DNA from: Bugula neritina
Taxonomy: Eukaryota > Bryozoa > Gymnolaemata > Cheilostomatida > Bugulidae
Length of the DNA stretch: 64,000 bases
Assembly (NCBI GenBank): GCA_964035545.1
Contig: OZ037768.1
Span: 15,500,175-15,564,174, forward strand
Direction of reading: 5' to 3'
Below, piece after piece: positions 1 to 18,556 of this stretch (positions are counted from its first letter, which is position 1; every line of letters starts with the position of its first letter). Under the pieces are notes generated by a model that ran no database searches, was not told where the DNA came from, and worked only from the letters and a program-made list of their open reading frames with translations. A program made the translations under genes and the position numbers.

Positions 1-2657
1 GTACCAATAAGTGCCCAGAGGTTCTGAAACGTGGCCAATAGTGCCAATAGTAGTTCTAGTGTGCTTAAAGATGCCCAAATGTCCTAAAATATGCCAAAAT
101 GTGCTAAATTGAGCCAAACATGCTTACAGTACCTATTAGTGCCCAGAATGTCTGAAACTAGCCGTATAATGCTAAAACTAAAACAAGTGTTCTCAACAGT
201 GCCCAAATGTGCTAAAACATGCCCAAATGTGCTAAAACATGCCCGAATACACTGACTTGAGCCGATTGAGCTAACAGTAGCAATAAATGCCCAGAGGTTC
301 TGAAACGTGCCCAATAGCGCTATAGTAGAACAAGTGTGCTCAACAGTGCCCAAATGGGCTAAAACATGCCCAAATGTACTAAATTGAGCCAAATATGCTA
401 ATAGTACCAATAAATGCCCAGAGGTTTTCAAACGTGCCCAATAGTGCTGATATAGAACTAGTGTGATTAACAGGGCCCAAATGTGCTCAAACGTGCCCAA
501 ATGTGCTAAAATGGGCCGAGTATACTAATCGCACCAACAACCGCCAAGAGGTTCTGAAACGTGCCCAATAGTGCTAATAGTAGAACTGGTGTGCTTAACA
601 GTGCCCAAATCTGTTAAAACATTCCCAAATGGGCTAAAACATGCCCAAATGTACTAAATTGAGCCAAACATGCTAATAGTACCAATTGGTGCCCAGAGGT
701 TCTGAAACGTGTCCAATAGTGCTAATAGTAAAACTAGTGTGCCTAAAAGTCCCCAAATGTCCTAAAACATGCCAAAACGTGCGAAATTGAGCCAAACATG
801 CTAATAGTACCAATTAGTGCCCAGAGGTTCTGACACGTGCCCAATAGTGCTAATAGTAGAACTGCTGTGCTTAACAGTGCCCAAATGTGCTAAAACATTC
901 CCAAATGTGCTAAAACATGCCTAAATTTACTAAATTGAGCCAAATATGCTAATAGTACTTATTTGTGCCCAGAAGTTCTGAACGTGCCCAGTAGTGCTAA
1001 AACTAGAACAAGTGTGCTCAACAGTGCCCAATTGGGCTAAAACATGCCCAAATGTACTAAATTGAGCCAAACATGCTAATAGTACCAATAGGTGCCCAGA
1101 GGTTCTGAAACGTGTCCAATAGTGCTAATAGTAAAACTAGTGTGCCTAAAAGTCCCCAAATGTCCTAAAACATGCCAAAACGTGCGAAATTGAGCCAAAC
1201 ATGCTAATAGTACCAATTAGTGCCCAGAGGTTCTGACACGTGCCCAATAGTGCTAATAGTAGAACTGCTGTGCTTAACAGTGCCCAAATGTGCTAAAACA
1301 TTCCCAAATGTGCTAAAACATGCCTAAATTTACTAAATTGAGCCAAATATGCTAATAGTACTTATTTGTGCCCAGAAGTTCTGAACGTGCCCAGTAGTGC
1401 TAAAACTAGAACAAGTGTGCTCAACAGTGCCCAATTGGGCTAAAACATGCCCAAATGTACTAAATTGAGCCAAATATGGTTATAGTACCAATAAGTGCCC
1501 AGAGGTTCTGAGACGTGCCCAATAGTGCTAAAAGTAGAACTGCTGTGCTTAACAGTGCCCAAATGTGCTAAAACATGCCAAGATGTTCTAAATTGAGCTA
1601 AACATGCTTGCAGTACCTATTAGTGCATAGAAATTCTGAAACGTGCCGTATAGTGCTAAAACTAGAACAAGTGTGCCCAACAGTGCCCAAATGTGCTAAA
1701 ACATGCCCAAATGTGCTAAAACATGCCCGAAAATACTAACTTGAGCCAAATGAGCTAATAGTACCAATAAATGCCCAGAGGGTCTGAAACGTGCCCAATA
1801 GCGCTAATAGTAGAACTACTGTGCTTAGCAGTGCCCAAATCTCCTAAAAGATGCCAAAACGTGCGAAATTAAGCCAAATAAGCTAATAGTACCAATAAGT
1901 GCCCAGAAGTTCTGACACGTGCCCAATAGTGCTAATAGTAGAACTGCTGTGCTTAACGGTGCCCAAAAGTGCTAAAACATTCCCAAATGGCCTAAAACAT
2001 GCCCAAATTTACTAAATTGAGCCAAACCTGCTAATAGTACCTATTTGTGCCCAGAAGTTCTGAACATGCCCAGTAGTGCTAAAACTAGAACAAGTGTGCT
2101 CAACAGTGCCCAATTGGGCTAAAACGTGCCCAAACGTACTAAATTGAGCAAAATATGATAATAGTACCAATAAGTGCCCAGAGATTCTGAAATGTGCATA
2201 AGAGTGCTGATAGTAGAACTACTGTGCTTAACAGTGCCCAAATCTGTTAAAACATTCCCAAATGGGCTAAAACATGCCCAAATTTACTCAATTGAGCCAA
2301 ATATGCTAATAGTACTTATTTGTGCCCTGAAGTTCTGAACGTGCCCAGTAGTGCTAAAACTAGAACAAGTGTGCTCAACAGTGCCCAATTGGGGTAAAAC
2401 ATGCCCAAATGTACTAAATTGAGCCAAATATGATTATAGTACCAATAAGTGCCCAGAGGTTCTGAGACGTGCCCAATAGTGCTAATAGTAGAACTGCTGT
2501 GCTTAACAGTGCCCAAATGTGCTAAAACATTCCCAAATGTACTAAATTGAGCCAAATATGCTAATAGTACCAATAAGTGCCCAGAGGTTCTGAAACGTGC
2601 CCAATAGTGCTAAAACCAGAGCAAGTGTGCTCAACAGTGCCCAGATTAGCTAACACA
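1..2657. repeat. Satellite array, left flank of the transposon
   Basis: Tandem satellite of imperfect 127/128-bp units plus 147/148-bp units; successive 'gtgcccagaggttctg' anchors lie at 2174, 2322, 2449 and 2577 (spacings 148, 127, 128). Each unit is built of roughly 20-bp submotifs of the form gtgcccaaatgtgctaaaac, and the long unit has one extra submotif. The array enters from outside the window. It stops abruptly inside a unit at 2657, where the 15.9-kb transposon begins. The same unit resumes in the same orientation at 18555. Bases 1-500 closely match 18739-19240, so the two flanks share higher-order structure. Short open frames on the minus strand are by-products of the repeat. No gene is seen. 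Confidence 0.97.
2656..2657. repeat. Target-site duplication, left copy (CA)
   Basis: The intact satellite unit reads gctaacacatgccc. The left flank ends gctaacaca at 2657 and the right flank restarts catgccc at 18555, so CA is present on both sides. A 2-bp duplication is short, but the junction is exact because the empty site is known from other units (for example near 20318). Confidence 0.7.
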
Positions 2658-2679
2658 CACAGCATAGTTAAGGTCATCC
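2658..2679 (+). repeat. Left terminal inverted repeat of the 15.9-kb transposon
   Basis: Starts cacagcatag and continues ttaaggtcatcc. It pairs with the reverse complement of 18533-18554. The three mismatches fall in the four bases after CACAGC. It lies exactly at the satellite/unique junction, which makes chance similarity very unlikely. Confidence 0.85.
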
Positions 2680-5172
2680 CCAGCATAAATTCATCTCATA
2701 ATCTAGTCTCAGTTCCTTTATGCTATTGCTCTGTGGGCGGCATGCGTATTGCCTACTTGTCATACTTTAGCATGAGGTTGAACAATTACCAGCAAACCAT
2801 TGCGCTAGTTAGGGCTGCACCTGTTTCCATTACAACCATCACAACAATCTATTGAGCAAGTATGCAAGTGGCAAGCCTCAGCATTACCTTATTATTATTA
2901 CGGGAGGTCATTGGTTCATTGTATATGCAATATACTTTATGCACAATGGAAGATGATTTTCATACAGTTACTTTTTCAACCAGCAATCTACAACTATTTC
3001 ACATTATGAAAGCAAGCTATATAGATACATCAATGCTAATTCATTATTTATCCATACAGCTATTTTAATGAAGTTATTATCAACAGCTATTGAAATGACA
3101 ATGCAGCCATCATCTAAGTAACTTTTATTGCTGCTCTACTAATAGATATTTTAAAAGATAAGAATTTCTCAAAGCATAATGTATTCTGGACTGTACTAAA
3201 AATATATCTGTTTAATGCCATTGACAATCTCAGAGCCAAAATTACCTTCATCAACAAAATCTTTCTCTAGTTGCACCTACTACAAGCTAAAAGTGACTTC
3301 TCGGTGTTGAATATTACTATCAGTTACATAATTTACGAGTCCACCCAATTGCTTAGCATAGTAAAGAGACTGGCATAGGTCAGATAGTCATGTGTGTGCG
3401 AGATTTTGTTGGTAGCTGTAAAGGGCAGATATGCAGTATTTTGAGTGACTGCTTTGAGTTTAGATGGTTTGGGTAACGGATTTGATTGCTGCAAGTTTCC
3501 CACAAAGCTAGTACTATTGCGGTCTCATTGATACTAGTATAATAAGCAGTAATCAGCACTCATTGAAGGGAGTTGGAACTATATAAAAAGGTTAGAAAAG
3601 TAGCCTGTGCTTCAAATAGTTTATTTGCTTTCTGATGCATACAGTCTAAACTCTAAAAGGTTCTATCAAGCTTACATGGCTTCGAGCTGAATGTCCAAAA
3701 ATTGGCCATGAGCTATATCTTGTTGCTCAACACTGGAAAATTTATGAGTTTGCAGCCATGCAGTGAACAATCAGGCTCCTTTGTACTTAGTTTGTTATCA
3801 TAGCTAGGCTTTTATATACTAACCCAGAGTTAAAATTATCAAATATTTTATGTTTTTTAAACTTGCCATCTAATAGGAAATGCTAGTTAAGCTAGACATC
3901 CGAGTTTGGCTGATGCATCGATGCTATGGTTGCCAGAGTGAAACAGCTGGGGGAATCCCCCCCTAGTGGGAATTCCCCCAGGTTGGGAACCACTGGTCCA
4001 GTTAGACTAACTGACATCATGCTTTCCTGAGTGAAACACCCAAGATGAAAAGTTTTAATCTTAGTTAGGCAAGAATTGAGATTTTGAAAAAAGCCTCCTT
4101 AAAATTATTACCATGTCGTTTAAGAACTTATACCATAGGTATAGAGAAAAGTATGTAAGTTTAATGCAGGTTTACTGATAATTATATGAACAGAGGCAGC
4201 GATCAACATTACATTTATGATGTCATTGCTAGTTATTCGCCAGAGTTGCTGCTATAGTTGGAAGAAGTAAAAACTCCAGCATGCTAACTTATACTGCTGT
4301 AAATGAAGAACTCAACAGATTCCATTGTGGCATGCATATTTCATTTTCTTGGGTCTACAGAAACCTTCAATGGTTCATTCACCCAATGGCCTTCATAGCT
4401 GTCAGAAAATGTGAACAGAATAACTAGGAGCTATATACTGCTGGTTATATACCACACATTATGTAACATAATTTAGGCAGTATTCATGGGGCTAAAACAT
4501 CTATAGGCTGTATTTATTGTAGGACTTATGACATTCAGGCAGTCTATTACTATATTAAATTATCTTGCCTGCTAAAACTTAGCACTGAATGGTAAAAGTA
4601 ATAGGCCGAAGCTTCTAAGTTATGATTTTTTTACTTTTAATAGGAGGCTCAACCAAATTTTTTAATTACCAACTATGTTGCACCAGCTATATCTAAAATC
4701 AGCTAGGCAAGGCAATTACAAATCCTGTTCACAGCTTCAAGCCATTTGCTAATCAGTAACCAACCATTTTAGCTACTTACTGCCATACTGGCCTCAAATT
4801 GTTGGTTACACATTTGGTGCATCTTTTCATTGCTTCTGCTTTATCAAAAAAATATGGAGCTTTCACCAAAGTGAAAAACCTATTGTTAAACAAAATACTT
4901 TCTGGCTGGATATGTATGTATTTGCTGTTAGATTTTGATTGTACTTAACTGAGTACTATGAACAAACAGTATCTACACCCGCAGCAATAGTTGGTTAAAT
5001 ATAGAAATGATTCATAATTTCAGTTATCCAGATTCTTAACACATGTAAGTTATGTGATTGGGTAGCTTCTATAAAGAAATTGGAGCCTAAATTTAAATAA
5101 GGAGCCAATTTTAGCAAAATCTGGTTATATAGAGCCTTGCCATTGCATTCATTCATTAGAGAACATTCAGTC
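2680..5172. other. Gene-free 5' part of the transposon
   Basis: No open frame here shows family motifs or a splice-linked continuation into the gene at 5173. It probably holds the promoter and 5' leader of the transposase-like gene. A TATA-like string occurs at 3579-3590 (ctatataaaaag), but nothing ties it to a start. The only recognisable repeat is a hAT-like end at 3949-3996. Additional 5' coding exons cannot be excluded from sequence alone. Confidence 0.5.
3949..3996 (-). repeat. hAT-like transposon terminus with G/C hairpin (fragment)
   Basis: Positions 3980-3996 read aggttgggaaccactgg, which is the reverse complement of the CAGTGGTTCCCAACCT type of terminus known from many hAT elements. 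Just inside, gggggaat (3949-3956) and attccccc (3972-3979) form an inverted pair around ccccccctagtgg. I see no matching opposite terminus and no 8-bp target duplication. It is therefore a fragment or solo end at best. Confidence 0.4.
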
Positions 5173-6054
5173 ATGGCAAAAGGCAGCACTTACAATAATC
5201 AGTGTGGTTTTCTAACCAACATCTTTTTTGTACATTTCAAATCTGGGACTGACGTAGAAAGATTTCAGCAAGATTACAACATACTAAACAAATTATCAAT
5301 AAAGGATTACAATCGAAACAGAAAGCAAACGAGAAGTTACTTAATGAAAAATGCCAGTTATTTCAATAAGGATGGAGAGGCAAAAAAGAGGTTTATGTCC
5401 TACTTTACACTAGTCAACTTTAAAAAACTTTCACCTGCGGCTAGATCACGGCATAGTCTTATGGATTGCTTTGAGTGTTCTATCAAACACAAAGCTGAGT
5501 GGCAGCTCAAAATTGGGAATGTGGACATTGCAAAGCCTGCTACATCTGAAACCGCAGTCAGGACTCTGAAAGCTGTTCTTGAAAAGACTCCAGAACAAAT
5601 AACAGGAAAGCTGGTCAAAGAATTTGTAACGAATGTCATTAAACCAGCAGAAAAAATTATAAATGAAACAACACATTCTTGCAAACTATTGAAGCCTAAA
5701 AGCAACGTCAAGAGGAAATCTATTGCTGCCAAAGACGTTCCAAAAAAAGTTCGGAGACAAATTATTAAAGCTGCCAATGAAAGCATCTCAAACCAAATTA
5801 TTAACAATGACTTTTTGGCTCTATATTCTACTAAACAGTCTCATTCAGAGTGGGATTTACAGAGGAAGCGCCAATTTGGTGAATTTAGAACCAACAGAAA
5901 AAAACCTCATATAGGAAGTTTTAGGAACTACACATTTGATTTAGAAGTGGTTGAAGCTACATTATCAGTTGGCAACACAACAAATTGGACACAGCTTAGC
6001 AAATCTGCTAATTTGAAAAACAAGCATGGTGAAGTTCCAAAAAATGCAGGCCAG
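5173..6054 (+). CDS. Exon 1 of transposase-like gene
   Basis: Codes residues 1-294 and ends in phase 0 at a good donor (cag|gtaaga). The basic N-terminal region includes HSLMDCFECSIKH (94-106), an H-x4-C-x2-C-x3-H spacing that could bind zinc. A lysine/arginine-rich linker follows (about 175-200), then the conserved block GEVPKNAGQ at the end. The open frame reaches back to about 5137 but has no ATG there, so 5173 is preferred. An upstream coding exon remains possible because the family's usual N-terminus is not known to me. Confidence 0.8.
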
Positions 6055-7707
6055 GTAAGAAAAAGAGGTAGCTAACGTTAATTATAATTGGATTTGTAAT
6101 AATGATTTATTGAGCTATATAATATTCTGTAAAAGAAATAAACATGATAATTTTGAACAAGTACGTTTGCTAATAGTCAAATATAATTTCTAAAATAAAC
6201 AGTTGTTCACATCAGGTTATGAAAGAATTGGTGAAAAGAAATATGAATCGAACGATAGAAAACCAACCAAGAAAGCGAATATCATGGATAAACTATAAAT
6301 CTTTAGCACTTAATGTTAAGAGAAAATCATCAGCTGCACAATTGAAGTTACAAAGGAAAAAAATGATAGACACAGGAGAGGTTGATGTAGGGGAGCTGAT
6401 AGTTCCGGTGGAATATCATGCACTCAAAGTGCACCCAGATGGCACATTGGTGAGTTTGACCTGAGCAGCTCAGTGCAAATACTATGACTGTATATAATTA
6501 CATACAACAATATTGTAATCCTGTTGTATTTTCAAGGTAAAGATTAGAAAGGAAGTATCCGGAAGAAAATTCTCACTTCAGAAGATTAGAGAACATCATT
6601 TACATCAAATGATGACTATGAAACTGTTGAGAAACATTAATCCGAGCAGTATGCCGCTGACTGAGGTTCTTGATTTCCTTGATCGAAATGGTACCTTGAA
6701 TCTCCTGTTGTTTTACTGATAGTCTTGTAATACCTACAGAAAAAAAATCAAATTTAGTGAGATGTATAGCAAAAATACAAAGCTGTATTACCAGTTTAAT
6801 CTTGATAGAAGTATTACCTTATAATGAGAGAAAATCATAGTAAAAATATATTATAGTTGACATTATATTCTCAACCTTAATTATCAAAGTTCATTAACTT
6901 TTTGATAAATGATGGAGTGCAATAATATGTGCCTTGTGCAGACAGCACAACCTCATTGATTAGTAACTCTAACAAATTGTATACTTGAGAAAATATTCAA
7001 GCATACACTGGTTCAGCTTGTGATGGTGTTATTATAAGTATAGCAGTGGGAAGCAATGAAGATCCTAGAGAGAGGCTACGCCAGGCTACTCAAACTCGCT
7101 ATATGGCACTGTGGCACGATCACTCTGATATTGCCGGTAAGTAGCATAAACTTACACACGTTCCTAAACTTTTACTTTATGCTGAATTCCAAACTAAAAC
7201 TTTTTATTTATCATAAATCAAATTACTATTATTGCAGGTAAAAGTCATTATCTGTTTATGGTGTGGTTCTTGTATGATCAGTGCACATATTACACGGATG
7301 AAGAATATGTGAAGCTCAACCAAACTGTAAGTTGTGTAATGTGCACAGTTAATGTCATTGTACAAGCTGTGCAAAAATACTATTTGTGTAACCCAAAACT
7401 TGTACAATTAATCCTTTTTTCACCAGTATTACATATACTTCCAATGCCTGTTTCTAACTCAGGAAAAGATAACTAGCATTCAATCAAGAGTTGAGGCACC
7501 ATATATCTACATACTGGCCAGATCTAGCTCATCAGTTAATGATCAGCTGCTTTACGTTCCAACTCGATTGGAAGACATGAAGATGTTAAAGCAACCAATT
7601 ACTTTGACAGATGGAAGAGACTTTTATGATGTGTTAAGGTTCTTTTCAGGGGACAACCCTGCAAGGCAGCTAGAAGCAGGACAACAGTGCGGAGGTATAT
7701 TCGGACA

Positions 7708-7800
<93 letters not shown>

Positions 7801-10800
7801 CAGTAATAGCATATAATTGTGCATAATCGCTTCTACTGACATATTTTATTTTTTTTGAAAATATCATTATTTCAGGAATGTTTCCATGCATATGCGGAGT
7901 GCAGGATGAACATTTTGGGAATGAAAGTTCACATAATAAAGGTGGCAGCTTCCACAACTTAGATTCAAGAGTCCAGCACCTCAACAAAACCAAAACATGG
8001 AAATCGGGCTTTCATAGTGGAAATATTGCTGTTTTCCAAACTCTCAGGGTATGTTGTATATGTGCAACTATATAAATAAGCTTGAAAGTAACTTTTTAGA
8101 AAGAATGTACATTTATTAATTTATTTATTGTATTTAAGACTGAAGAACTCAAAGCAGAACTCCTCAGGAGAAATGTAGCTTTCTCAACTACAGACCAACC
8201 GGCACAACTAAAGAAGCTACTAAATGTCAATCTCAAAGGTAGGCAAAGCTGATGAACAACTAATTATTCATGTGAGCTTCTCTGGTGGAAGAATTTGGCT
8301 ATAAAGGCTAAAGGGTACATTGAATGTGTGTATGTGCAAGAGTGTAGGCTGCCTATATAAAGAGGGTAAATATCATTTGTAACTTACCAACAGGTATCAA
8401 GAGGCCTCCAGCATTACTTTGCTCAAGAATGGAAAATCCAGTGGATATTTCGCAGTATGAAATAGCACTGATGGAGCCATTACATGACTTCAAAAATGTA
8501 ATTAATAGAGTTTTGAAAGAGCTTCCTCATTCTACAGAAGAAAAAGAATTAAAAGTTATGCTATCAAATCTAATTTCTGACATAGAAGGTAAACATTATC
8601 ATTTTGATATAACTGATATTGATGTAAAAGTTTTATAGAAAACAAAATGTATAAATAAAATTTAAAATATTGTGGCATGCCAATATAGTTTATAGAAACC
8701 TAATGGATAAATTCTAAGAATTTATCTAAGAATTGATGTTAGAGCAGTTATGCAATGACAATACAAATTTCCAAATTATATTAGTAGTTCAATGTAGAGA
8801 AAATTATAAATGCAGTTGATAATTGAATCTACACAATGCTGAAAAACCAAGATGTTAGGTAAGAGCTTCTGCCTTTATACAACTGTAACTACCACACTGC
8901 ATGAGTTCTGCATTTTATTACAGCACAAAACCGGGAAATGAAAGGTACAGAGAGTAGAATTAACCTAGTAAAAGTGGCTGTAATGCTAAAACAATTTGAG
9001 TTTTCTCCCGATGGCCGGACAATGTATACAATGCTCCTTTCGCTAATTGAGCTACAAAAATTGGCATACGCTCTTGATACCCAAAGGACACAGAAGAACA
9101 TTTTAAGGGCATACAATCATAGTTTTTTATTTGCCATGAGGTGTATACAGTTATTTAAAGAACCAAAGACATGCAGCAAACGGGCAATGTTTCAGGCCGG
9201 TCCCTGGTAGCAGAAAGTGCTGAAAGGCATTTCCACAAGCTAAGGTACAAGCTGTCATTTGACGGCATATATTTAGGATACTAATATAGTTTGTGAAAAA
9301 TAATTGAATAGTTCAACTTCAATGAAAATAAAAAATGTTTAGTCTCCCAACAACTAATACAACTTCCTAAATTAATTTATTTTAGAGAAATTGCTTTGCG
9401 ATGCTCCAGCAGAGAAGCAAATGATATTATTGCCAAAGCAATGTTCAGGGCAGCTGTGGAGAAAAGAGCTGACAGCACATCAGAGAGCAGCATTGCAGTG
9501 CAAGAGAAACAGATAAACCAGAAAATAAGCAGTTCATCAATTACAAAATCTTGTTGTGGATTATATTTGGGACAAAATACTGTTATCTCAACCAAGTAAG
9601 TTTTAATTATAGCTTGGGGTAGGCCTACTTAACATTTCATATGTAAATAACTATATAGCTACAGCAATAATATTGTGACCTCACCAGCAGTTTGTAATGA
9701 TAAAGCATATTTATTGTAAGAATGCTTTGATCTCTAGATTTCTAACAACACATAGAACTGCAGCTCTGCACCACTTCAAACGAATAGCAGACTACCTAGA
9801 ATTGGGAGAGGGTACGTGGTACACAGTGCGAGAAGGAGCTATAGAGTTCCACGATGGCGATAGCTCTCCCAGTAGCCATGATGCAGGACCTGCATTGGCT
9901 CATTTTCGGTAAATAATATTATTCAAATAGTCAACTGCTTTTATTTTAAGAGACTGATACCTTTTAAAATTTTCAAAGATGTCAGATAAATATATCATTA
10001 ATATTGTTTTTCTGCTAGCTGTTTCTATTTATAAATGCCGCTCCCACGATATGAAAGACATTAACAGCATGTTGGATAATAGCTGGGAATTCTGTGTTCG
10101 AAATAAAAGTTCCTTAAAAATCCCACTTCTCATAGACGAGCAAAGATGTAGTGCAAAAATATTAGGTGGGTAATATTTTAAACATAAGCTTCAATATTCT
10201 TTTGCCTTCTAATATTATTTGCAATACTCTCATAAGGCAGCAATGATGAAAGTTTTGAAAGATCACTCATATTTTGCTAATATAGTTTTTTTATAAACTA
10301 TTTAAATATCAAGGTCAGTTTTAAAGTCTATTATCATTAATATTTTTTTAAAATTACATCTAGAACAACCAGCAACAAGCCAGATCAAACCTAGTATTGG
10401 CATCATAATGAAAGAGTTAGAAGACAACAGAAACCCTGCGCACACTGCATCTATTCTGCAACAGGAAACACTCCAACTGGTTAAGGAAGATAGTCTGTCA
10501 GCTTCTTTTGTGTGTGCTGTCCCCTTACTAACAAAAAGTAAGTACTGCAAAAGTAAATGTAGCTGGACTTTGTCATTATAATTATTTAGTTGCTGCAAGT
10601 CTAAAAATTATTAAAATCAATATCTCAAAAAGCTTAACTCAGTATTACGTTTCATAGTTAGATCACAACTATTCAACAACATTTAATACCACTCCGACTG
10701 CCATGCAAATTGATCTTTCAAATGCATGATATAGACGTAGACTAATTAATGTAAATGAGCAAGTATTGACTTGATCAAAAACTTACAAATTAGCCCCAAT

Positions 10801-11577
10801 AGTCATGTCACACTATAATATAAGTATTGGACAGGACTGAGTTTTGCACAACTTGATTTTGTTCATGTATACTGAGAATTGGCATAGCTGAATGTTGACT
10901 TGATCTGAATTTCTGTGACTATATCCAATTTATATTTATTAAAAAATCTTACCTTTAGATTTGACTCCCAAAAGCATGTTAACACCCAGTACAAGCAACA
11001 AAATGCCGGTTAAAAGCTGTAACAAGTCAGTTTCAGGTGAGTCAAGAAAGTCAACGAAGAATCTCACAACTGATCAACTTTAAATCAACAAAATTATTTG
11101 TTGCTAATAAATAATAAATAATTTATGCATGATGCTACATCCTTCGTGGACTCGGCGGTATTTTAGCCAAAAATATTAATTGTTCAACTACAGTATATTA
11201 GACTGATCGAACTGTTCAACTGCTATTGTGAGTTGTTGCAGATGAGCCTAAACAATTGCTAAAGACAAATGTATATAATTTGTATTTTAGATACTATACG
11301 AAGTATATGGCCATATAGCACAAGTATATTGGAAGACTTTATCAAAGCTAAAAGAGATTGCAAAGACAAAACGATACTTGCTCACAAAATCAAGTGGAGA
11401 GAAGTGTGCAAGAAAATTAGACCATTTTTAACGCAACTATTAGAGAAACTGATAGAAAAGAACAAAGCTGAAACAATGGAAAAGCTTAAAACAAAAGGAC
11501 TATTTGCTCTGGAAGCGGACCCACAAAATTCTTATAAGATAAAATGCATAAATTACTGGTTAAAGCAAATTAGCTAA
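5173..11577 (+). CDS. Transposase-like gene of the 15.9-kb element, 16 exons, probably degraded
   Basis: Spliced model: 5173-6054, 6216-6449, 6537-6690, 7047-7136, 7238-7326, 7463-7694, 7876-8048, 8139-8238, 8394-8588, 8924-9244, 9386-9595, 9738-9908, 10041-10165, 10364-10537, 10959-11036, 11291-11577; about 1,170 codons. Phases agree at every junction. The ATG at 5173 is the first in the open frame; the frame extends upstream without an ATG. Seen in order: an H94/C99/C102/H106 cluster, a conserved NWTQLS...GEVPKNAGQ block (about 270-294), WHDHSD (446-451), FFSGDNPARQLEAGQQ (543-558) followed by CIC (565-567), a SAP-like helix pair (619-650), and EPLHDFK (679-685). The DNPA...G...C-x-C layout resembles CACTA/EnSpm transposases, so D448, D547 and E679 are candidate catalytic residues. 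A frameshift near 9200 and a lost splice acceptor at 10040 suggest the copy is inactive. A variant poly(A) signal ATTAAA lies at 11817-11822. Confidence 0.75.
6216..6449 (+). CDS. Exon 2 of transposase-like gene
   Basis: Phase 0 at both ends; acceptor acatcag, donor gtgagt. It begins VMKELVKRN, which continues the GEVPKNAGQ block of exon 1 across the junction. The exon codes residues 295-372. It contains a basic stretch (KRKSSAAQLKLQRKKM) and GEVDVGELIVP, which precedes the segment encoded by exon 3. Confidence 0.85.
6537..6690 (+). CDS. Exon 3 of transposase-like gene
   Basis: Acceptor ttttcaag, phase 0 start. It codes VKIRKEVSGRKFSLQKIREHH and on to LDFLDRN, residues 373-423, ending in phase 1 at a weak donor (g|gtacct). 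Reading on past the donor would reach a stop at 6718-6720. The donor was chosen because it restores the frame of exon 4. Confidence 0.7.
7047..7136 (+). CDS. Exon 4 of transposase-like gene (WHDHSD motif)
   Basis: A 90-nt exon between acceptor tagcag and donor g|gtaagt, phase 1 at both ends. It codes VGSNEDPRERLRQ...YMALWHDHSDIAG, residues 424-454. D448 in WHDHSD precedes a hydrophobic strand in exon 5 and is a plausible first catalytic aspartate of an RNase-H-like fold. That role is inference. A different frame through this stretch is also open from 7056 but has no family motif. Confidence 0.75.
7238..7326 (+). CDS. Exon 5 of transposase-like gene
   Basis: Acceptor attgcag, donor gtaagt; starts in phase 1 and ends in phase 0. 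It codes KSHYLFMVWFLYDQ and YYTDEEYVKLNQT, residues 455-483, a hydrophobic strand followed by an acidic loop. The strand directly follows the WHDHSD motif of exon 4. Confidence 0.85.
7463..7694 (+). CDS. Exon 6 of transposase-like gene (D-x-P-A motif)
   Basis: Acceptor aactcag, start phase 0; donor g|gtatat, end phase 1. It codes residues 484-560, including YIYILARSSSSVNDQ and the signature RFFSGDNPARQLEAGQQ (542-558). D547 is the candidate second catalytic aspartate. The D-x-P-A...G spacing followed by C-x-C in exon 7 is the main resemblance to CACTA/EnSpm transposases. The next intron opens into a long (TA)n tract. Confidence 0.85.
7711..7798. repeat. (TA)44 microsatellite in intron 6
   Basis: An uninterrupted 88-bp TA run begins 16 bp after the exon 6 donor and ends 77 bp before the exon 7 acceptor. 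It is self-complementary and could form a hairpin in the transcript. The perfect run suggests recent expansion. It is not coding: the long YIYIY runs in open frames here are artefacts. Confidence 0.98.
7876..8048 (+). CDS. Exon 7 of transposase-like gene (C-x-C segment)
   Basis: Acceptor atttcag, start phase 1; donor gtatgt, end phase 0. It codes residues 561-618 beginning GMFPCICGV (C565, C567). Several histidines (HFGN, SSHNKGG, QHLNK) follow, which could complete a zinc site inserted in the catalytic core. The related block in my memory of the family has C-x2-C, so the C-x-C here may be a variation. Confidence 0.8.
8139..8238 (+). CDS. Exon 8 of transposase-like gene (SAP-like)
   Basis: Acceptor atttaag, start phase 0; donor g|gtaggc, end phase 1. 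It codes TEELKAELLRRNVAF followed by QPAQLKKLLNVNLK, residues 619-651. The helix - turn - helix pattern 'L-K-x-E-L-x-x-R...L-x-x-L-L' resembles a SAP DNA-binding motif, which is common in DNA-interacting proteins. Domain assignment is tentative. Confidence 0.8.
8394..8588 (+). CDS. Exon 9 of transposase-like gene (EPLHDFK motif)
   Basis: Acceptor ccaacag, start phase 1; donor g|gtaaac, end phase 1. It codes residues 652-716, including IKRPPALLCSRMENP and YEIALMEPLHDFK. E679 is the candidate third acidic residue. The E-P-L-H-D block occupies the place of the P-x-D-x-M-H type motif after the cysteines in CMC transposases. That equivalence is inference and needs a profile comparison. Confidence 0.8.
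8924..9244 (+). CDS. Exon 10 of transposase-like gene, frameshifted
   Basis: Acceptor attacag, start phase 1. It codes AQNREMKGTESRINL through FKEPKTCSKRAMFQ in one frame, which then stops at tag 9208-9210. From about 9198 the frame two bases on continues RSLVAESAERHFHKLR to donor ag|gtacaa in phase 2, exactly matching exon 11. The coding exon therefore runs to 9244 but has lost register between 9195 and 9201. From memory of the family, about 20 residues are also missing at that point. The result is a broken gene unless the base calls are wrong. Confidence 0.75.
9386..9595 (+). CDS. Exon 11 of transposase-like gene
   Basis: Acceptor attttag, start phase 2; donor gtaagt, end phase 2. It codes EIALRCSSREANDII...MFRAAVEKRADS and a serine-rich, likely disordered tail segment. 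It joins RHFHKLR of exon 10 through a split arginine codon, which is why the shifted frame of exon 10 is taken as the real one. Confidence 0.8.
9738..9908 (+). CDS. Exon 12 of transposase-like gene (GTWYTVREGAIEFHDG)
   Basis: Acceptor tctctag, start phase 2; donor gtaaat, end phase 2. It codes HHFKRIADYLELGEGTWY, AIEFHDGDSSP and AGPALAHFR. This is one of the most recognisable blocks of the uncharacterised animal family I recall. It is rich in W/H/D residues and lies C-terminal to the putative catalytic core; its role is unknown. Confidence 0.85.
10041..10165 (+). CDS. Exon 13 of transposase-like gene, acceptor lost
   Basis: Codes SHDMKDINSMLDNSWEFCVRN and on to KIL, ending in phase 1 at attag|gtgggt. 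For the phase-2 donor of exon 12 the exon must start with ctcccac at 10041, giving HFR-SHDMK. The two bases before it are cg (tgccg) where ag is expected. An alternative acceptor (attaacag, about 10068) also keeps frame but drops nine residues and has no pyrimidine tract. Either way splicing here is likely impaired. Confidence 0.6.
10364..10537 (+). CDS. Exon 14 of transposase-like gene
   Basis: Acceptor catctag, donor gtaagt, phase 1 at both ends. It codes EQPATSQIKPSIGIIMKELE through FVCAVPLLTK. No motif is recognised; the composition suggests a linker region near the C-terminus. Confidence 0.7.
10959..11036 (+). CDS. Exon 15 of transposase-like gene
   Basis: Acceptor cctttag, donor g|gtgagt, phase 1 at both ends. 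It codes a short basic, serine/threonine-rich piece (LTPKSMLTPSTSNKMPVK). No domain is seen. It is supported mainly by consensus splice sites and phase continuity. Confidence 0.65.
11291..11577 (+). CDS. Exon 16 (terminal) of transposase-like gene
   Basis: Acceptor gtattttag, start phase 1, stop taa at 11575-11577. It codes DTIRSIWPYSTSILEDF followed by a lysine-rich helical segment (REVCKKIRPFLTQLLEKL, MEKLKTKG) and ends LKQIS. This could be a coiled or DNA-contacting tail. Downstream, ATTAAA at 11817-11822 is a possible poly(A) signal. Confidence 0.7.
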
Positions 11578-13035
11578 AAATAATTTAGAACAGCAATTTA
11601 TGTTGCTGATTGCAAGTGCGGAGCTGTTTTTAATAAGTTTGACCATCTCCATTATCTCTCATCATTTCCATGCATGGAAATTTTATTTTTTTAACGAAGT
11701 GTTATAGAATAACTATAAGTTATTACTTAATAGCTACTGCAGTTATCATAGACAAACTGATGGAGCTCAAATTTAAATTACGTCATGTTAAGTTTAACTC
11801 TATATTGGGATTTATTATTAAAGTTTTAGGGTGCGCCCGTAAAGTTTTATTTATTTTTTTCACATTATAATTGATATTCATATTGTTATAATTTTATAAA
11901 TATAAGGATAAAGTTATGACAATGAATGTAAAACAATTGCATATAAAAGAATGTGGTGCATACTGGACATCATGATTATGATTATCTAAATAATATAAAT
12001 ATGCATCATTGTAACTGCATGTGTAATCATAATGTGTACAACTACAAGTGCAAAATGAAAATAGTGGGCCGAATAATTTATTGATGGGTCAATAGTATTA
12101 CTATTAGTGTTAACTATTAGTATTATTACTTATTGGTTATTAGAATTACTATTAATGTTAGACTTTGAACTAGAAGTTAGTAGTAGTTACTGTTAGTGTT
12201 ACTGTTAAAGTCTCTAACTATTATTATTACTGTATTTAAATTTTAGCAGTTGAACTCAACAAAACTTTGAACCACAAAAACAAAAAATTAAATTAAAATT
12301 TGAAAAGCACAAAATACGATAAAACTTGCATACCAGCAAACATAAGTCTTAGTCTTAGTGAGTGAGTCTTTCCTCCGGTGAGCCAGTTTGATTTTCACAT
12401 TGTTTAAAAGATAAGGGTTTTTTTTAATATTTTTCACAACTAAAATAATTTGATTTTCATAGTGAATGAATATATATTACTTACCAGTAAAAACCGTTCT
12501 TGTCTTGGCATATTATGTATGCTAGATATCATTAATCCAGGTCAAGTCTAGCAAAGTCTCATAGCGCCGTACAATTGCAGTAGCTGTACTAGATTTCCTG
12601 CATCGTAGTAAACCGCAGCTAGAAAGTTGATCACGCAGCACAAGCATGCACAGTTTTAAAGGGGGGTTGTTGGATTTAACATTTTCAAAAGATAAGGGGA
12701 TCTTGCAGTATAAGAAAATTATCTATCAATTCATAATACATCTAAAAACTTAATATGTCTTTAATAAAATAAAATATTCTCTCACCAAGATAGCAAAGAA
12801 AAATTGTTATACATAAATTTTAATCAAATTCCCCCACCCCTGATATAATACTATATTTAGGCTACCCACTTGAAGGCTGCATGCTGGACAACCAGTCACC
12901 TTCGTGATCTTGATTCAAAATAGTATTATAAAAATAAACTAATTGTGTATACTGCAAGCCGAAAGCATAAATTGCTCAAATAACTTAGAAAGCAAGCTGG
13001 CAATAACAAATGCTACTGAATACTATTACATACTA
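11578..13035. other. Gene-free 3' region of the transposon
   Basis: AT-rich sequence with no supported open frame. Positions 12095-12235 are low-complexity (tta/tat-type runs). A diverged pair of short direct repeats ending aaaagataaggg occurs near 12404 and 12686. Nothing here resembles a second transposon gene. Confidence 0.5.
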
Positions 13036-13037
13036 AT

Positions 13038-13919
13038 AGACCATGTAAAACTCAGCCAATCAGCGAAGTGTACCAGGTCAATGTCTTACTATTGTAACTG
13101 ATATAAAATTCTGCAAGTTCAATTGCAAAATGCATGCTTCTAAAAGCTAGTTGTGCAACTTTTTTTTCATGCATTATTTAATTTCATATCTTAAATTGAT
13201 GACTCTTGAAATGATTTTTTAAAATGTCTAAATTAAGTGTTTATAAAACGCAAATAAAAATTGCATGTCTAGAAAAATGACCTGGTACACTTTTGCAACT
13301 TAAGGCCAATTATTACATAACTGCCAGCTTAGTAGTTATTTGTTGTTGCAGCTTGAATGGGTTATTGTTTAGCATTGGAAGCTTGCAGTAAACATCTGTG
13401 AATTTGGTACATGACTTCGATTGGCTGGTTTTTGAATGGCCCTTTAGTATATGCATCTGGATGGCTGGGTAGTGTGGACTCCGCCTACATCTAGCTAATG
13501 TACAGTAGCCAATCCACAGTAGTATTACAAAATTTCTGTTTAACAAATGAAATATTCTGGTCATTTGTTTTGTACTTTACAATAGTAAATATTCTATTCA
13601 ACTAGAATTTTATTGTATGTAAGCCATGGGAACTACTAAGAGGTTAAATCAACCACCCATGCTGGTAATATTGTTGCTAGCAGTAATAGCAAGTCCACAC
13701 AGTATAAATATACACATAAGCTATTATGTGCAGCTTATAAATGCTGAAATGACCCCATTTCTTACTTACAATTTGAAAAAAATTGTATTACATATTCTGC
13801 CACTTCTGCACCAGGAATTTGTTTTCCTTTTAAATTTTGAAAATAGTAGTCAGTTTCTGCAGCAGTCAACTGCATCCACAATAAACAACGTAAGCTTTCA
13901 AATAAACTATAAGTATATG
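13038..13919 (+). repeat. Left inverted arm of the nested element
   Basis: Matches the reverse complement of 15656-16527 almost base for base. Small differences include an indel around 13870-13890. An 83-codon open frame on the minus strand of this arm is repeated exactly on the plus strand of the other arm (16001-16252). That is expected for arms of a palindrome and is not evidence of a gene. Confidence 0.95.
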
Positions 13920-14092
13920 AAATATTAAGTGTGGAAACAATGTAATTTAGTTCTTGCTATGATGAAAAATTACAAGAATATTATATTATAAAAGCTAGAT
14001 ATAGATTTCTATAAAATGGCACAGGTAAAAATAACACATTTTTACTTCAAATTTTAAATTTCATCAGTCACCAATGGTGGCTGTAGATTACA

Positions 14093-14553
14093 GAGAGCAT
14101 AGCAGACTATCATAATCATAAGGATGGTCAGCCCACTGAGCAAAATCCAACTCCAACCTTTCATTTGGGTTACCAACGCACTAAAGCATATAATGTAAGA
14201 CGAACAAAAAACAGTGGTTTTAATGAAACATGTGAAGGAAGCAAACAGAAAACGTTATCAACAGAGTCAGCTGATATAGAGCAACAGAACTCATCTGACA
14301 GCCATCCTCATAGTCAGGCTTCATCAGAAGTAACTGAGTTACCAGAATCATCAACTACTCAGAAAAAAAGATCTGCACATTCTATTGATAGACGAAAATC
14401 AAAAGTTGGAAGAAAAGGCTCAAAAAGATCCACGTTTAAACAAAAAGCAGCTATTGAAAAAGTAAAAGTTTTTAAAACTTTCATCACTACAGATGAGCAA
14501 ACTAAATTCTATACTGAAATACCTACACGTTCTCTATACTATTTTTTAGCAAG
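14093..14553 (+). pseudogene. Transposase fragment, THAP-type tail region (nested element)
   Basis: Open frame following a possible acceptor (gattacag|ag) with NPTPTFHLGYQRTKAYNV near its start. This resembles the segment just after the THAP zinc finger in ISL2EU-type transposases. A serine-rich linker and a basic stretch (KKRSAHSIDRRKSKVGRKG) follow, then TDEQTKFYTEIPTRSLYYFLA, which normally precedes the helix-turn-helix. It ends at donor ag|gtgaaa in phase 2. No ATG and no C2CH zinc-finger residues are visible upstream, so the N-terminus is missing. Confidence 0.55.
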
Positions 14554-15394
14554 GTGAAAATTATGATTTTCTTATTGCAAAGATAGACTATGGTTTATTA
14601 CAAATAAACAATGCAAGTCTCACTATGCTAAAATTTCTACATTGATTAAATTTGATGTGTATTAAAACTGTCATTTTAATTAAATTTGTTGCATTGTGAG
14701 TGTATCATTCATACATTTTTTATTAAAGATGTTGTTTTATGTAAGATATTCATAAATACCACAGTGGACATCTGTATGCTTTGACTTATTTAGTTTAGGG
14801 TTTTATTTAAACAAGCAGCAGTATTTTATTTGTGGACAAATTGACTCACTTTCTCTAGGAAAAGTAAATTGTTTTGACTTAAATTTTCCTTGGTTATTTT
14901 AAAGCTTATCAAAAGTGGCCTCCTAATCTAATTTTTAGCTGAAACTAACTCAGTGTTTAAAACTAAAATGGTTTACACTTGTTACTAGTTTCACTTATTC
15001 ACAAACATTATTAAATGCTATTCTAGAAATAATATGGGTTTGAATTAGTTATAGTATAATTATAAAATGAAGTAATAATTGTTTGTCCACAGTATTTGTT
15101 TAAACTCATAACTTCATTCAAAGCATGTATTCATACAACTAGCTTACCATGTACTGTTACAGTATTATGTAACACATGTTGACACACATTACATTCTGTT
15201 TGGATGGTGATATATTGGGTCAAGCCTTCAGCTAGCAGTTCTTGAACTTCATAGTTGTTGCAAAATATAACTGAAGCTACTTACCAGAGGGTAAAAACTG
15301 CTGAATGAATACAAACTAAGCACAAAATTTATTTAGCACATACATTATAATTTGAATCATAATTTAATTTTCATTCTTTATTTTCTATATTTAG

Positions 15395-15668
15395 ATTTAT
15401 ATGTCCGAAGATGAAAGTTCTTATTCTCCAAAAAAAGTTAACAAGACAAGATGAACTTTTATTGGCTTTGATGAAGCTGCGTCAAGGTTTACAGTTTCAA
15501 ATACTTGCTGGCCTTTTTTATATCTCTAGATTGCTAGCAAGCAAAACCTTCAAAAACACATTAGATATTTTAGCAAGAGAACTGAACAATCTAATAGTTT
15601 TTCCAACAAGAGAGAAGCTGAACATCCCTCTGAGCTTTCAAAGCCAATATGCTACCATATATTTATAG
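15395..15668 (+). pseudogene. Transposase fragment, HTH_Tnp_4-like (nested element)
   Basis: Joins the preceding fragment in phase through acceptor atatttag (split arginine codon). LTRQDELLLALMKLRQGL, then YISRLLASKTFKNTLDILA and VFPTREKLNIPLSF, follows the pattern of the HTH_Tnp_4 domain that precedes DDE_Tnp_4 in ISL2EU/Harbinger-type transposases. The frame stops at 15666-15668 just as the right arm begins. The expected 'I-I-D-C-T-E' and the rest of the DDE domain are absent in frame. It is a truncated relic. Confidence 0.65.
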
Positions 15669-16527
15669 TTTATTTGAAAGCTTACGTTGTGGATGTTGAC
15701 TGCTATAGAAACTGACTACTATTTTCAAAATTTAAAAGGAAAACAAGTTCCTGGTGCAGAAGTGGCAGAATATGTAATACAATTTTTTTCAAGTTGAAAG
15801 TAAGAAATGGGGTCATTTCAGCATTCATAAGCTGCACATACTAGCTTATGTGTATATTTATACTGTGTGGACTTGCTATTACTGCTAGCAACAATATTAC
15901 CAGCATGGGTGGTTGATTTAACCTCTTAGTAGTTCCCATGGCTTACATACAATAAAATTCTAGTTGAATAGAATATTTACTATTGTAAAGTACAAAACAA
16001 ATGACCAGAATATTTCATTTGTTAAACAGAAATTTTGTAATACTACTGTGGATTGGCTACTGTACATTAGCTAGATGTAGGCGGAGTCCACACTACCCAG
16101 CCATCCAGATGCATATACTAAAGGGCCATTCAAAAACCAGCCAATCGAAGTCATGTACCAAATTCACAGATGTTTACTGCAAGCTTCCAATGCTAAACAA
16201 TAACCCATTCAAGCTGCAACAACAAATAACTACTAAGCTGGCAGTTATGTAATAATTGGCCTTAAGTTGCAAAAGTGTACCAGGTCATTTTTCTAGACAT
16301 GCAATTTTTATTTGCGTTTTATAAACACTTAATTTAGACATTTTAAAAAATCATTTCAAGAGTCATCAATTTAAGATATGAAATTAAATAATGCATGAAA
16401 AAAAAGTTGCACAACTAGCTTTTAGAAGCATGCATTTTGCAATTGAACTTGCAGAATTTTATATCAGTTACAATGGTAAGACATTGACCTGGTACACTTC
16501 GCTGATTGGCTGAGTTTTACATGGTCT
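15656..16527 (-). repeat. Right inverted arm of the nested element
   Basis: Reverse complement of the left arm; the outer end reads catggtct at 16520-16527. Its inner edge overlaps the last codons of the HTH_Tnp_4-like fragment. One arm boundary therefore cuts through former transposase coding sequence. Confidence 0.95.
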
Positions 16528-16529
16528 AT

Positions 16530-18532
16530 TGATGCAGTCAAATGAAAATATGTTAGGCTATGTTATGTTAAGGTAAAATTCAGGCCTTAGCTGCATGCAG
16601 TAAATAGATAAATTCTAGCAGAGAACGTACTATCTCTACTTATTTCAAGTTCATATCTACAGTATCACCGCATGCAGATTAGTTTCTGCCAAGTTTCCTC
16701 AACACTGAAGGATCTCATGACTGCAGCTGAGTTAGCAATATTATGCTTGTTGACTAGTTAGAGAGTTTTTTATGACACATTATTTTCATCCTGCAAACTC
16801 TGCCACATTGAAAGGGTTTAATATGACACTGATATTCTTGATGTAAGTGCCTAATTTACTTATCAGTAACAAGTGATTTAGTTGGCCTTCAAGCTCAAAT
16901 CATGAGCTCATTTCAGCTAAAAATAGCTGCACCTTGTCACTGCATATATGAATGGCTGCATGGCCACTGCCTCAGCCATCAACTTCTATTGCAAAACTGC
17001 TACGTGCAATATTTATTCATCAATCAGAAACTATACCTATTTTAAGCTACCAGAGTTTTGTTACTATATAAAGAGTTGCCTACTTATAGGTGCAAAAATA
17101 AAAAAGCCTCAATACCTAGTCTAAATTCTTTAATTTTTTAAGAGATTCTAATTTGAGAACAGGTTGATATTTTATGCTGCATCTCACTGCCTATAATAGG
17201 TCCAATAATTATAGGAAACATATAGGGTTTAATTTCTCAATATCCTCATCACTACACGTACCTCATACTTGGTATACTCATGAAACTGGTAATACGATTT
17301 TTATCAAAATTTGACTATATTTTTAAAAATAAAGTTATACAATTACTATTCAATTAGTTAAGAATTTCCTCCAACAACTTTTGTAGAAGCGGAGGTTTTT
17401 TAAAACTTTAAATTAGCAATGCAATAAGCTTGGTTATAAATCTATTATTAGTATAATTTATATTACCTTACAGAACAACAAATTTGCTTTTAAATCGCGC
17501 ACAAAAGCTATAAAACTTGGTGGCTACTACATCTCACTAGCATTATAAGGTGCTTAGGTTTTTAAGCTGCATAAACTATAATTGCTAAACTGTTTTGTGC
17601 TGAAAATGTATAGGCTAAAGAGTATACACTTGCACTCAGCTAGCTTGGAAGCTCTGCAGTAGAATAATGAAATTTTTGTCTCGCTTTGAAATGTTTCTGA
17701 TGTTGCGTTGGGACACTTTGGCTCAGAGGTGTGAAGCTGAAACTCTCAAAAAATATTATTAGATCAGAAACTGATATTTCAAATATATTTTGTTTGATTT
17801 GTGTCTCTTATGTGTGGTTCTACAGACTTCAAAAACTGCTTCATAACTTTATACAACTAAAATCTAAAATCGGGGTATAGCTAGACTACACATTTTACAG
17901 CCTCGCAGCTGTAGGCAGTACAGCAACTTTGCAACCACCGAGATTTACTACCCTACAATATTTAGTAACCAGTCTCGTACTATGTAACTGGTTTAGCACA
18001 GAGATGAACTATAACCCTTTGGTTTAGCGCGCAAACAACATGAATCATAGGTCGCGTGAGCTCCCTGTAATCATTATGATAGCTAGCAGCGCAGCGCAGC
18101 TCTACTGTGTTCAGCCAAGCATGCAGACTAAGGGGAAGCAAAATTTCTAATAAAATCAGTGTATAAATTACATGTTTACACTTATTCTATTGAAGCTATG
18201 CAGAAAATTTGAAAAGGTTCCAATAGACAAATATCTTATCACTCCATAACTCAGTTTTTGAAAAAATATATCAAATAGCAATTGAGTTATATTTCGGGCA
18301 CTGAGACCATGTTTTTTTGAGCAAAAATGGGTAAAATCTGGTAGTTTTTCGGGCATAAAAGTACAACAGATAAGACAAATGAAAGTTTTAAAAAAGGTTC
18401 CAATAGAGCAGCAAGAGATATACAACATAGTTTTTGAATTTTGTTTCTAGACTCAAAATTATTCAAGTTATGAGTTGGGCACTGTTTCATATATGATTAT
18501 AATGGAGCAATGAAATTACTGATTCAGTAGAA
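16530..18532. other. Gene-free 3' end of the transposon
   Basis: AT-rich with no recognisable open frame. The last 330 bp hold a diverged two-copy subterminal repeat listed separately. Short minus-strand frames at 18168-18490 span those repeats and carry no known motif. Confidence 0.5.
18203..18484. repeat. Diverged subterminal direct repeat, two copies
   Basis: Copy 1 (18203-18303) and copy 2 (18381-18484) share aaaaggttccaatag near the start, agtttttgaa in the middle and gggcactg at the end, in the same order and at similar spacing. Subterminal repeats close to a terminal inverted repeat often serve as transposase binding sites in CACTA-type elements; that function here is inference. No counterpart was found near the left end. 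Confidence 0.55.
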
Positions 18533-18554
18533 GGATGACCTTAATCAAGCTGTG
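18533..18554 (-). repeat. Right terminal inverted repeat of the 15.9-kb transposon
   Basis: Reads ggatgaccttaa then tcaagctgtg. Its reverse complement matches 2658-2679 at 19 of 22 positions. Satellite sequence resumes directly after it. Confidence 0.85.
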
Positions 18555-18556
18555 CA
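18555..18556. repeat. Target-site duplication, right copy (CA)
   Basis: Second copy of the CA found at 2656-2657. Removing 2658-18556 restores an intact satellite unit identical in layout to the one at 20303-20330. Confidence 0.7.

What the first reader, a model, noticed from the sequence alone, without database searches (positions are those of the whole stretch)
5173..11577. Candidate undescribed transposase lineage related to CMC/EnSpm
The element's only gene encodes about 1,170 residues in 16 exons and lacks any classical domain I can name. Its core reads WHDHSD ... FFSGDNPARQLEAGQQ.GG..PCIC ... EPLHDFK. The D-x-P-A...G...C-x-C order mirrors the D-x-P-A...G...C-x2-C region of EnSpm (Transposase_21-type) proteins. 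D448, D547 and E679 would form a DDE triad with spacings of 99 and 132 residues. I recall very similar blocks in abundant uncharacterised proteins of cnidarians and sponges; linking them to terminal inverted repeats would explain their abundance.
Basis: partly seen in the sequence, partly recalled or inferred. Interest (0 to 1): 0.87.

Follow-up and report, generated by a model that had tools for sequence, protein, structure and literature searches.

The report
RAG1-like animal DNA transposon lineage
The gene is a dead copy of the cut-and-paste enzyme of a jumping gene with many relatives in this animal-like genome; a related enzyme is predicted to fold like RAG1, which shuffles our antibody genes, and the family is not recognised by the protein-family database searched here.

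Summary
The finding is largely right about what the thing is, but wrong on its extent and on one catalytic residue.

The gene (5173-11577, 16 exons) lies inside a larger transposon, 2658-18554, with 22-bp inverted repeats starting CACAG. A ~99% identical copy sits on another contig. This genome holds hundreds of such ends, in the window's family and a second one (68% identity in the longest matched exon) with gene-bearing copies and ~756-bp gene-less copies. Insertions duplicate 2 bp: 14 of 16 pairs (window family), 4 of 4 (second family, gene-bearing, examined), 20 of 20 (its short copies, fetched).

A homologue (P0010) folds confidently (pLDDT 86.7) as an RNase H transposase; its 17 PDB matches at E<=0.001 are all RAG1. 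The glutamate it named (EPLHD) is conserved, but the RAG1 match points to a later AExxER helix after an H(4)H pair. A SAP-like domain is inserted in the core.

Pfam finds no transposase model in the proteins scanned; profile comparison with plant EnSpm matches only the D-x-P-A/C-x-C block, marginally. The window copy is dead: a 55-bp deletion removes H(4)H.

Best reading: a distinct lineage of the EnSpm-Transib-RAG1 (CMCT) clade. Whether Repbase already holds it could not be tested.

The parts
2658..18554 (+). whole transposon, 15,897 bp here (about 12.4 kb without the nested element at 13038-16527)
   Evidence: 98.7% and 99.3% identity to the C6 copy starts and stops at these bases, satellite DNA outside
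2658..2679 (+). 5' terminal inverted repeat CACAGCATAGTTAAGGTCATCC
18533..18554 (-). 3' terminal inverted repeat, CACAGCTTGATTAAGGTCATCC on the minus strand
2656..2657 (.). target-site duplication CA, left copy
18555..18556 (.). target-site duplication CA, right copy
5173..11577 (+). transposase gene, 16 exons: 5173-6054, 6216-6449, 6537-6690, 7044-7136, 7238-7326, 7463-7694, 7876-8048, 8139-8238, 8394-8588, 8924-9244, 9386-9595, 9738-9908, 10041-10165, 10364-10537, 10959-11036, 11291-11577
   Evidence: borders read from the sequence and checked; no transcript evidence
5173..6449 (+). exons 1-2: N-terminal part, probably DNA-binding (inferred)
   Evidence: exon 1 is 47% identical to family B over 295 residues; no Pfam hit; function inferred
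7118..7120 (+). codon of D1 (WHD, D449; P0010 D56; RAG1 D600 by position in the fold, RAG1 number recalled)
7652..7654 (+). codon of D2 (GDNPA, D548; P0010 D153; RAG1 D708 by position in the fold, RAG1 number recalled)
7876..8048 (+). exon 7: starts with the zinc-type Cys pair PCICG
8139..8238 (+). exon 8: SAP-like domain inserted in the RNase H core
   Evidence: SAP matched in 18 of 62 homologues, best E 1.7e-5; the same region of the profile aligns to solved SAP domains, weakly
9188..9189 (+). site of the 55-bp deletion in exon 10 (frameshift, loses the H(4)H motif); the C6 copy carries these 55 bp
9213..9224 (+). ESAE: E833 (9213-9215) and E836 (9222-9224), candidates for the third catalytic residue (P0010 E435/E438; RAG1 E962 region)
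10039..10040 (+). exon-13 acceptor changed (CG; AG in the C6 copy)
13038..16527 (.). nested foreign element, about 3.5 kb with long TIRs, TSD AT; absent from the C6 copy (empty site)

Best explanation
The gene is a decayed copy of the DDE transposase of a cut-and-paste DNA transposon. Inferred mechanism: the N-terminal part and the inserted SAP-like domain bind DNA; a RAG1-like RNase H core (D449, D548 and a Glu in AESAER, steadied by a Cys pair and an H(4)H zinc-type site) cuts at the CACAG termini; strand transfer at staggered positions leaves a 2-bp duplication; working gene copies also move gene-less copies in trans. By fold and motif order the transposase belongs to the EnSpm-Mirage-Chapaev-Transib (CMCT) clade, as a lineage that Pfam does not recognise. 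SHOWN: the ends, the 2-bp TSDs, two families with gene-bearing copies, gene-less copies with the same ends, the predicted fold of a homologue, conservation of the motif residues. INFERRED: cleavage chemistry, DNA-binding and zinc roles, movement in trans, which of the two Glu is catalytic, present-day activity.
Confidence: 0.91

Rival explanations
1. It is an ordinary, already catalogued animal EnSpm/CACTA family (as in Repbase), only missed by Pfam.
For: CAC termini; D-x-P-A...C-x-C block shared with plant EnSpm; animal CACTA-type elements with 2-bp direct repeats are known (SmTRC1: 7 of 14 copies, PMC1636069, passages read); EnSpm folds like RAG1 too.
Against: SmTRC1 carries a Transposase_21 domain, and that paper suggests a CCC core for such animal elements. 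No Transposase_21 match in the C6-based protein or in six homologues at E up to 10, nor among the 25 families listed for 62 homologues (24 further families not shown). No PF02992 match in this genome, though the 14 control genomes were silent too, so that search shows little. Whole-profile hhalign probability 2.7%, core 14.7%.
Confidence: 0.3
2. A member of the Transib/RAG1 branch proper.
For: RAG1 and HzTransib are the best structural matches.
Against: 2-bp TSD, not Transib's 5 bp (recalled); no sequence match to RAG1 or Transib chains by phmmer or profile; plant EnSpm also matches RAG1 best, so this match does not separate the branches.
Confidence: 0.08
3. A domesticated or host gene that happens to lie between repeats.
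For: Many exons; homologues in several animal phyla.
Against: Gene copies lie inside TIR/TSD-bounded units at several loci in two families, and the window copy is decayed.
Confidence: 0.02

Closest known systems
EnSpm/CACTA transposases (Pfam Transposase_21, TNP2)
   Same: CAC termini; D-x-P-A...G...C-x(1-2)-C block; an H(3)H pair followed by an E-R helix in the same order (seen, alignment not significant); RAG1-like predicted fold
   Different: not matched by Transposase_21; SAP-like insertion; EPLHD block; 2-bp rather than 3-bp TSD (3 bp for fungal EnSpm in PMC12730594)
SmTRC1 and related animal CACTA-like elements (PMC1636069, passages read)
   Same: animal CACTA-type elements with 2-bp direct repeats
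   Different: CCC core termini suggested and a Transposase_21 domain
RAG1 / Transib
   Same: closest solved folds, covering model residues about 36-477; same order D, D, Cys pair, H(4)H, E (RAG1 order recalled; CMCT motifs as in PMC12730594)
   Different: no detectable sequence similarity; TSD 2 bp versus 5 bp (recalled)
Plavaka, ESTA, Lanisha (other CMCT lineages, PMC12730594, passages read)
   Same: C(2)C and H(3-4)H motifs, CA..TG termini in most cases, TSDs of 2-5 bp for the clade
   Different: PlavakaA termini TGT..ACA, PlavakaB CATCA..TGATG; ESTA makes TA TSDs; no sequences were at hand for comparison
P element / hAT (Hermes) transposases
   Different: 8-bp TSDs (recalled); Hermes only at Foldseek E>=0.08

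Membership tests
CMCT clade (EnSpm-Mirage-Chapaev-Transib, Kojima 2025) | D, D, E on an RNase H fold | tested here: met
   P0010 model fold, RAG1 match and conservation; which Glu (E435 or E438) is not resolved and distances were not measured
CMCT clade | C(2)C between second D and E | tested here: inconclusive
   9 of 17 rows of A1 covering it have C-x2-C, 7 (window family included) C-x-C, 1 C-x2-S
CMCT clade | H(3-4)H before the last E | tested here: met
   H(4)H: H414 55/56, H419 53/55; present in the C6 copy and family B, deleted in the window copy
CMCT clade | CA..TG termini and 2-5 bp TSD | tested here: met
   CACAG..CTGTG, 2 bp
EnSpm/CACTA | Transposase_21 (PF02992) domain | tested here: not met
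   no match for the C6-based protein or six homologues at E<=10; the listed plant EnSpm hits carry it
EnSpm/CACTA | CACTA/CAC termini | tested here: met
   CAC yes, CACTA no
EnSpm/CACTA | 3-bp TSD (2-4 bp in a broader use, recalled) | tested here: inconclusive
   2 bp; a 3-bp match in 2 of 20 short copies and one 3-bp case in family A
Transib/RAG1 | sequence similarity to RAG1/Transib proteins | tested here: inconclusive
   no sequence match to their PDB chains, but the fold matches best
Transib/RAG1 | 5-bp TSD (recalled) | tested here: not met
   2 bp
Plavaka | TGT..ACA or CATCA..TGATG termini | tested here: not met
   CACAG..CTGTG; termini rule read in PMC12730594
KDZ | 8-bp TSD (stated for Zisupton in PMC12730594) | tested here: not met
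   2-bp TSD
any Repbase/Dfam family | similarity to a catalogued consensus | not testable with these tools
   no repeat library on hand

The most novel reading that the evidence does not exclude
A previously unclassified, superfamily-level lineage of DDE transposons in cnidarians, amphioxus, a mollusc, a bryozoan and this genome: RAG1-like core with a SAP-like domain spliced into it, CACAG termini, 2-bp TSDs of varied sequence, and recent-looking gene-bearing and MITE-like copies here. Placed in a tree, it could help show how the RAG1/Transib and EnSpm branches of the clade are related.
Probability: 0.45. Interest if true: 0.72.

Novelty: new variant of a known kind. Interest (0 to 1): 0.6.

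Why it matters
It attaches a family of proteins now called 'uncharacterized' or 'hypothetical' in animal genomes to a transposon with defined ends, so repeat libraries could mask them and gene counts drop them. It adds a branch with a RAG1-like fold whose place relative to RAG1's ancestry can be tested. Family-B copies that are identical over their last 1,265 bp suggest a system worth trying for activity.

Tried and rejected
EPLHD Glu as catalytic: rejected because mouse RAG1 is matched up to model residues 471-477 = RAG1 995-1003, which, if no gap lies between, puts RAG1 E962 near P0010 433-438, whereas EPLHD is at 285-289. E435 keeps the E-x5-F spacing of RAG1 E962-F968 (RAG1 segment checked); E438 is what hhalign pairs with the EnSpm ER motif (not significant). 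Left open.

EPLHD as the counterpart of EnSpm HNLDVMHIEKN: looked alike by eye, not supported; 2 of 20 shuffles scored higher and the true alignment did not pair the motifs.

Viral or prokaryotic homes of the family: none confirmed in viral contigs (12 pattern stretches, 0 relatives) or genome contigs (53 stretches, 0 relatives); each scan used one pattern only, the EPLHD block. No viral structural match at E<=0.001.

Homologues' flanks in other animals: not testable; no animal genome collection is on hand and metagenome scans are capped at 0.

Literature: nine searches (one search found no paper). No title or abstract start in the listings looked like a description of this lineage. I read passages only of PMC12730594, PMC1636069, PMC3985635 and PMC2872659, and of the other papers saw the listing alone. 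The library holds only open-licence PMC papers; Repbase Reports was not seen in it.

VIA rows list no Plavaka, ESTA or Mirage structure; that absence says nothing.

Full report
WHERE IT IS. The window is part of a 215.8-Mb, 295-contig genome whose name is withheld. The best-scoring named homologue is from the bryozoan Bugula neritina (46% identity over 53% of the query region), so a bryozoan host is only a guess. Satellite DNA with 20/128/148-bp periods fills most of the window, 60-2657 and 18555-63979.

THE ELEMENT IS BIGGER THAN REPORTED. A blastn comparison with the genome's second full-length copy (contig C6) gives 98.7% identity over window 2658-13040 and 99.3% over 16528-18554, with satellite matches beginning right outside on both sides. 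Its ends are inverted repeats, CACAGCATAGTTAAGGTCATCC and CACAGCTTGATTAAGGTCATCC, flanked by CA on both sides. The stretch 13038-16527 is a separate nested element with long TIRs and TSD AT; C6 holds the empty site.

TWO FAMILIES, 2-BP TSD. With up to 3 mismatches the TIR pattern has 412+426 matches in the genome, the reversed control 5+12; these include the related family-B TIR, CACAGGATAGTTAAGGGCA[TA]CC, with 222+235 exact matches and control 0+0. Family A (the window's): among 30 fetched ends, 10 pairs had both ends, and all 10 show a 2-bp TSD of varied sequence (GA, TC, AA, CC, CA, TA, AT, CG, CA, TT). Of six further pairs four do, one has no TSD and one has a 3-bp TAT: 14 of 16. Family B: gene-bearing copies on C1 (11,027 bp), C4, C6 and C3 have TSDs AT, TA, TA, TA; a fifth locus (C6:6141722, minus strand) was not examined. 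Twenty short ~756-bp copies, chosen by spacing from the 100 listed of 457 ends, show a 2-bp TSD in 20 of 20 and a 3-bp match in 2 of 20; two of them (L065, L066) share flanks and may be one event. They are 94% identical on average (78-100%), and their last ~477 bp are 79-92% identical to the autonomous element. Ten other family-A TIR-bounded loci of 2.1-14 kb have blastn matches to the terminal regions (window about 2658-4105 and 16848-18554) but none to the gene; two of them also carry matches to the nested element's arms.

THE GENE. With 16 exons the C6 copy reads as one open frame of 1,190 residues and a final stop. Compared with C6, the window copy lacks 55 bp in exon 10, between GTTT repeats; this shifts the frame and removes the stretch with the H(4)H motif (FHCLTVH in C6). 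Its exon-13 acceptor reads CG where C6 has AG, and C6 in turn has GG at the exon-11 acceptor. So neither copy read here is intact. A six-frame search with the C6 core finds 72 exon matches, among them five family-B loci at 68% identity in the longest exon. The family-B copy on C1 shows stops only between exon-like blocks; the C1 and C4 copies are 100% identical over their last 1,265 bp. A third family-A copy on C3, 76-85% identical, was not read in detail.

HOMOLOGUES. One search lists 17 proteins, (profile search) 64, four of them seen before: 77 in all. Named sources: Bugula, Mytilus, Branchiostoma (four), Nematostella, Oculina, Actinostola, Paramuricea, under names such as 'uncharacterized' or 'hypothetical'. 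Most others have no name. Both searches scored only the ~8,000 candidates sharing most words, so the counts are lower bounds. For alignment A3 I used 62 of the 77 (15 left out, mostly short).

SAP. Between the Cys pair and EPLHD lies a SAP-like stretch: Pfam SAP in 18 of 62 homologues at E<=5, best 1.7e-5; the A3 profile aligns the same stretch to solved SAP domains at E 0.011-0.26. A DNA-binding role is inferred.

VERDICT. A real transposon with a RAG1-like DDE transposase, dead in this copy, in a genome where relatives look recently spread. New relative to Pfam and to the papers searched; not shown to be new relative to Repbase.

Noticed in passing
13038-16527: Nested element with 836-bp, 99% matching inverted arms, TSD AT, ORFs at 14165-14557 and 15411-15668; the second reads like the HTH start of an IS5/ISL2EU-type transposase (recalled, not searched). 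The C6 copy has the empty site.
   Followed up: partly
60-2657 and 18555-63979: Long satellite array (units of about 20, 128, 148, 276 bp) with marked strand asymmetry; both near-identical copies of the element sit in related satellite (about 65% identity), in opposite orientation to it.
   Followed up: no
G000:C8:798496-811757 (L043/L044) and C8:3262257-3276262 (L045/L046): 13-14 kb TIR-bounded units that match the window element only at the ends; inner DNA not examined.
   Followed up: partly
L061-L080: A ~756-bp gene-less copy family with the family-B ends, very uniform in length (755-759 bp in 20 fetched copies, which were chosen by spacing).
   Followed up: yes
7710-7798: A perfect AT dinucleotide run (44.5 copies) inside intron 6 of the gene.
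   Followed up: no
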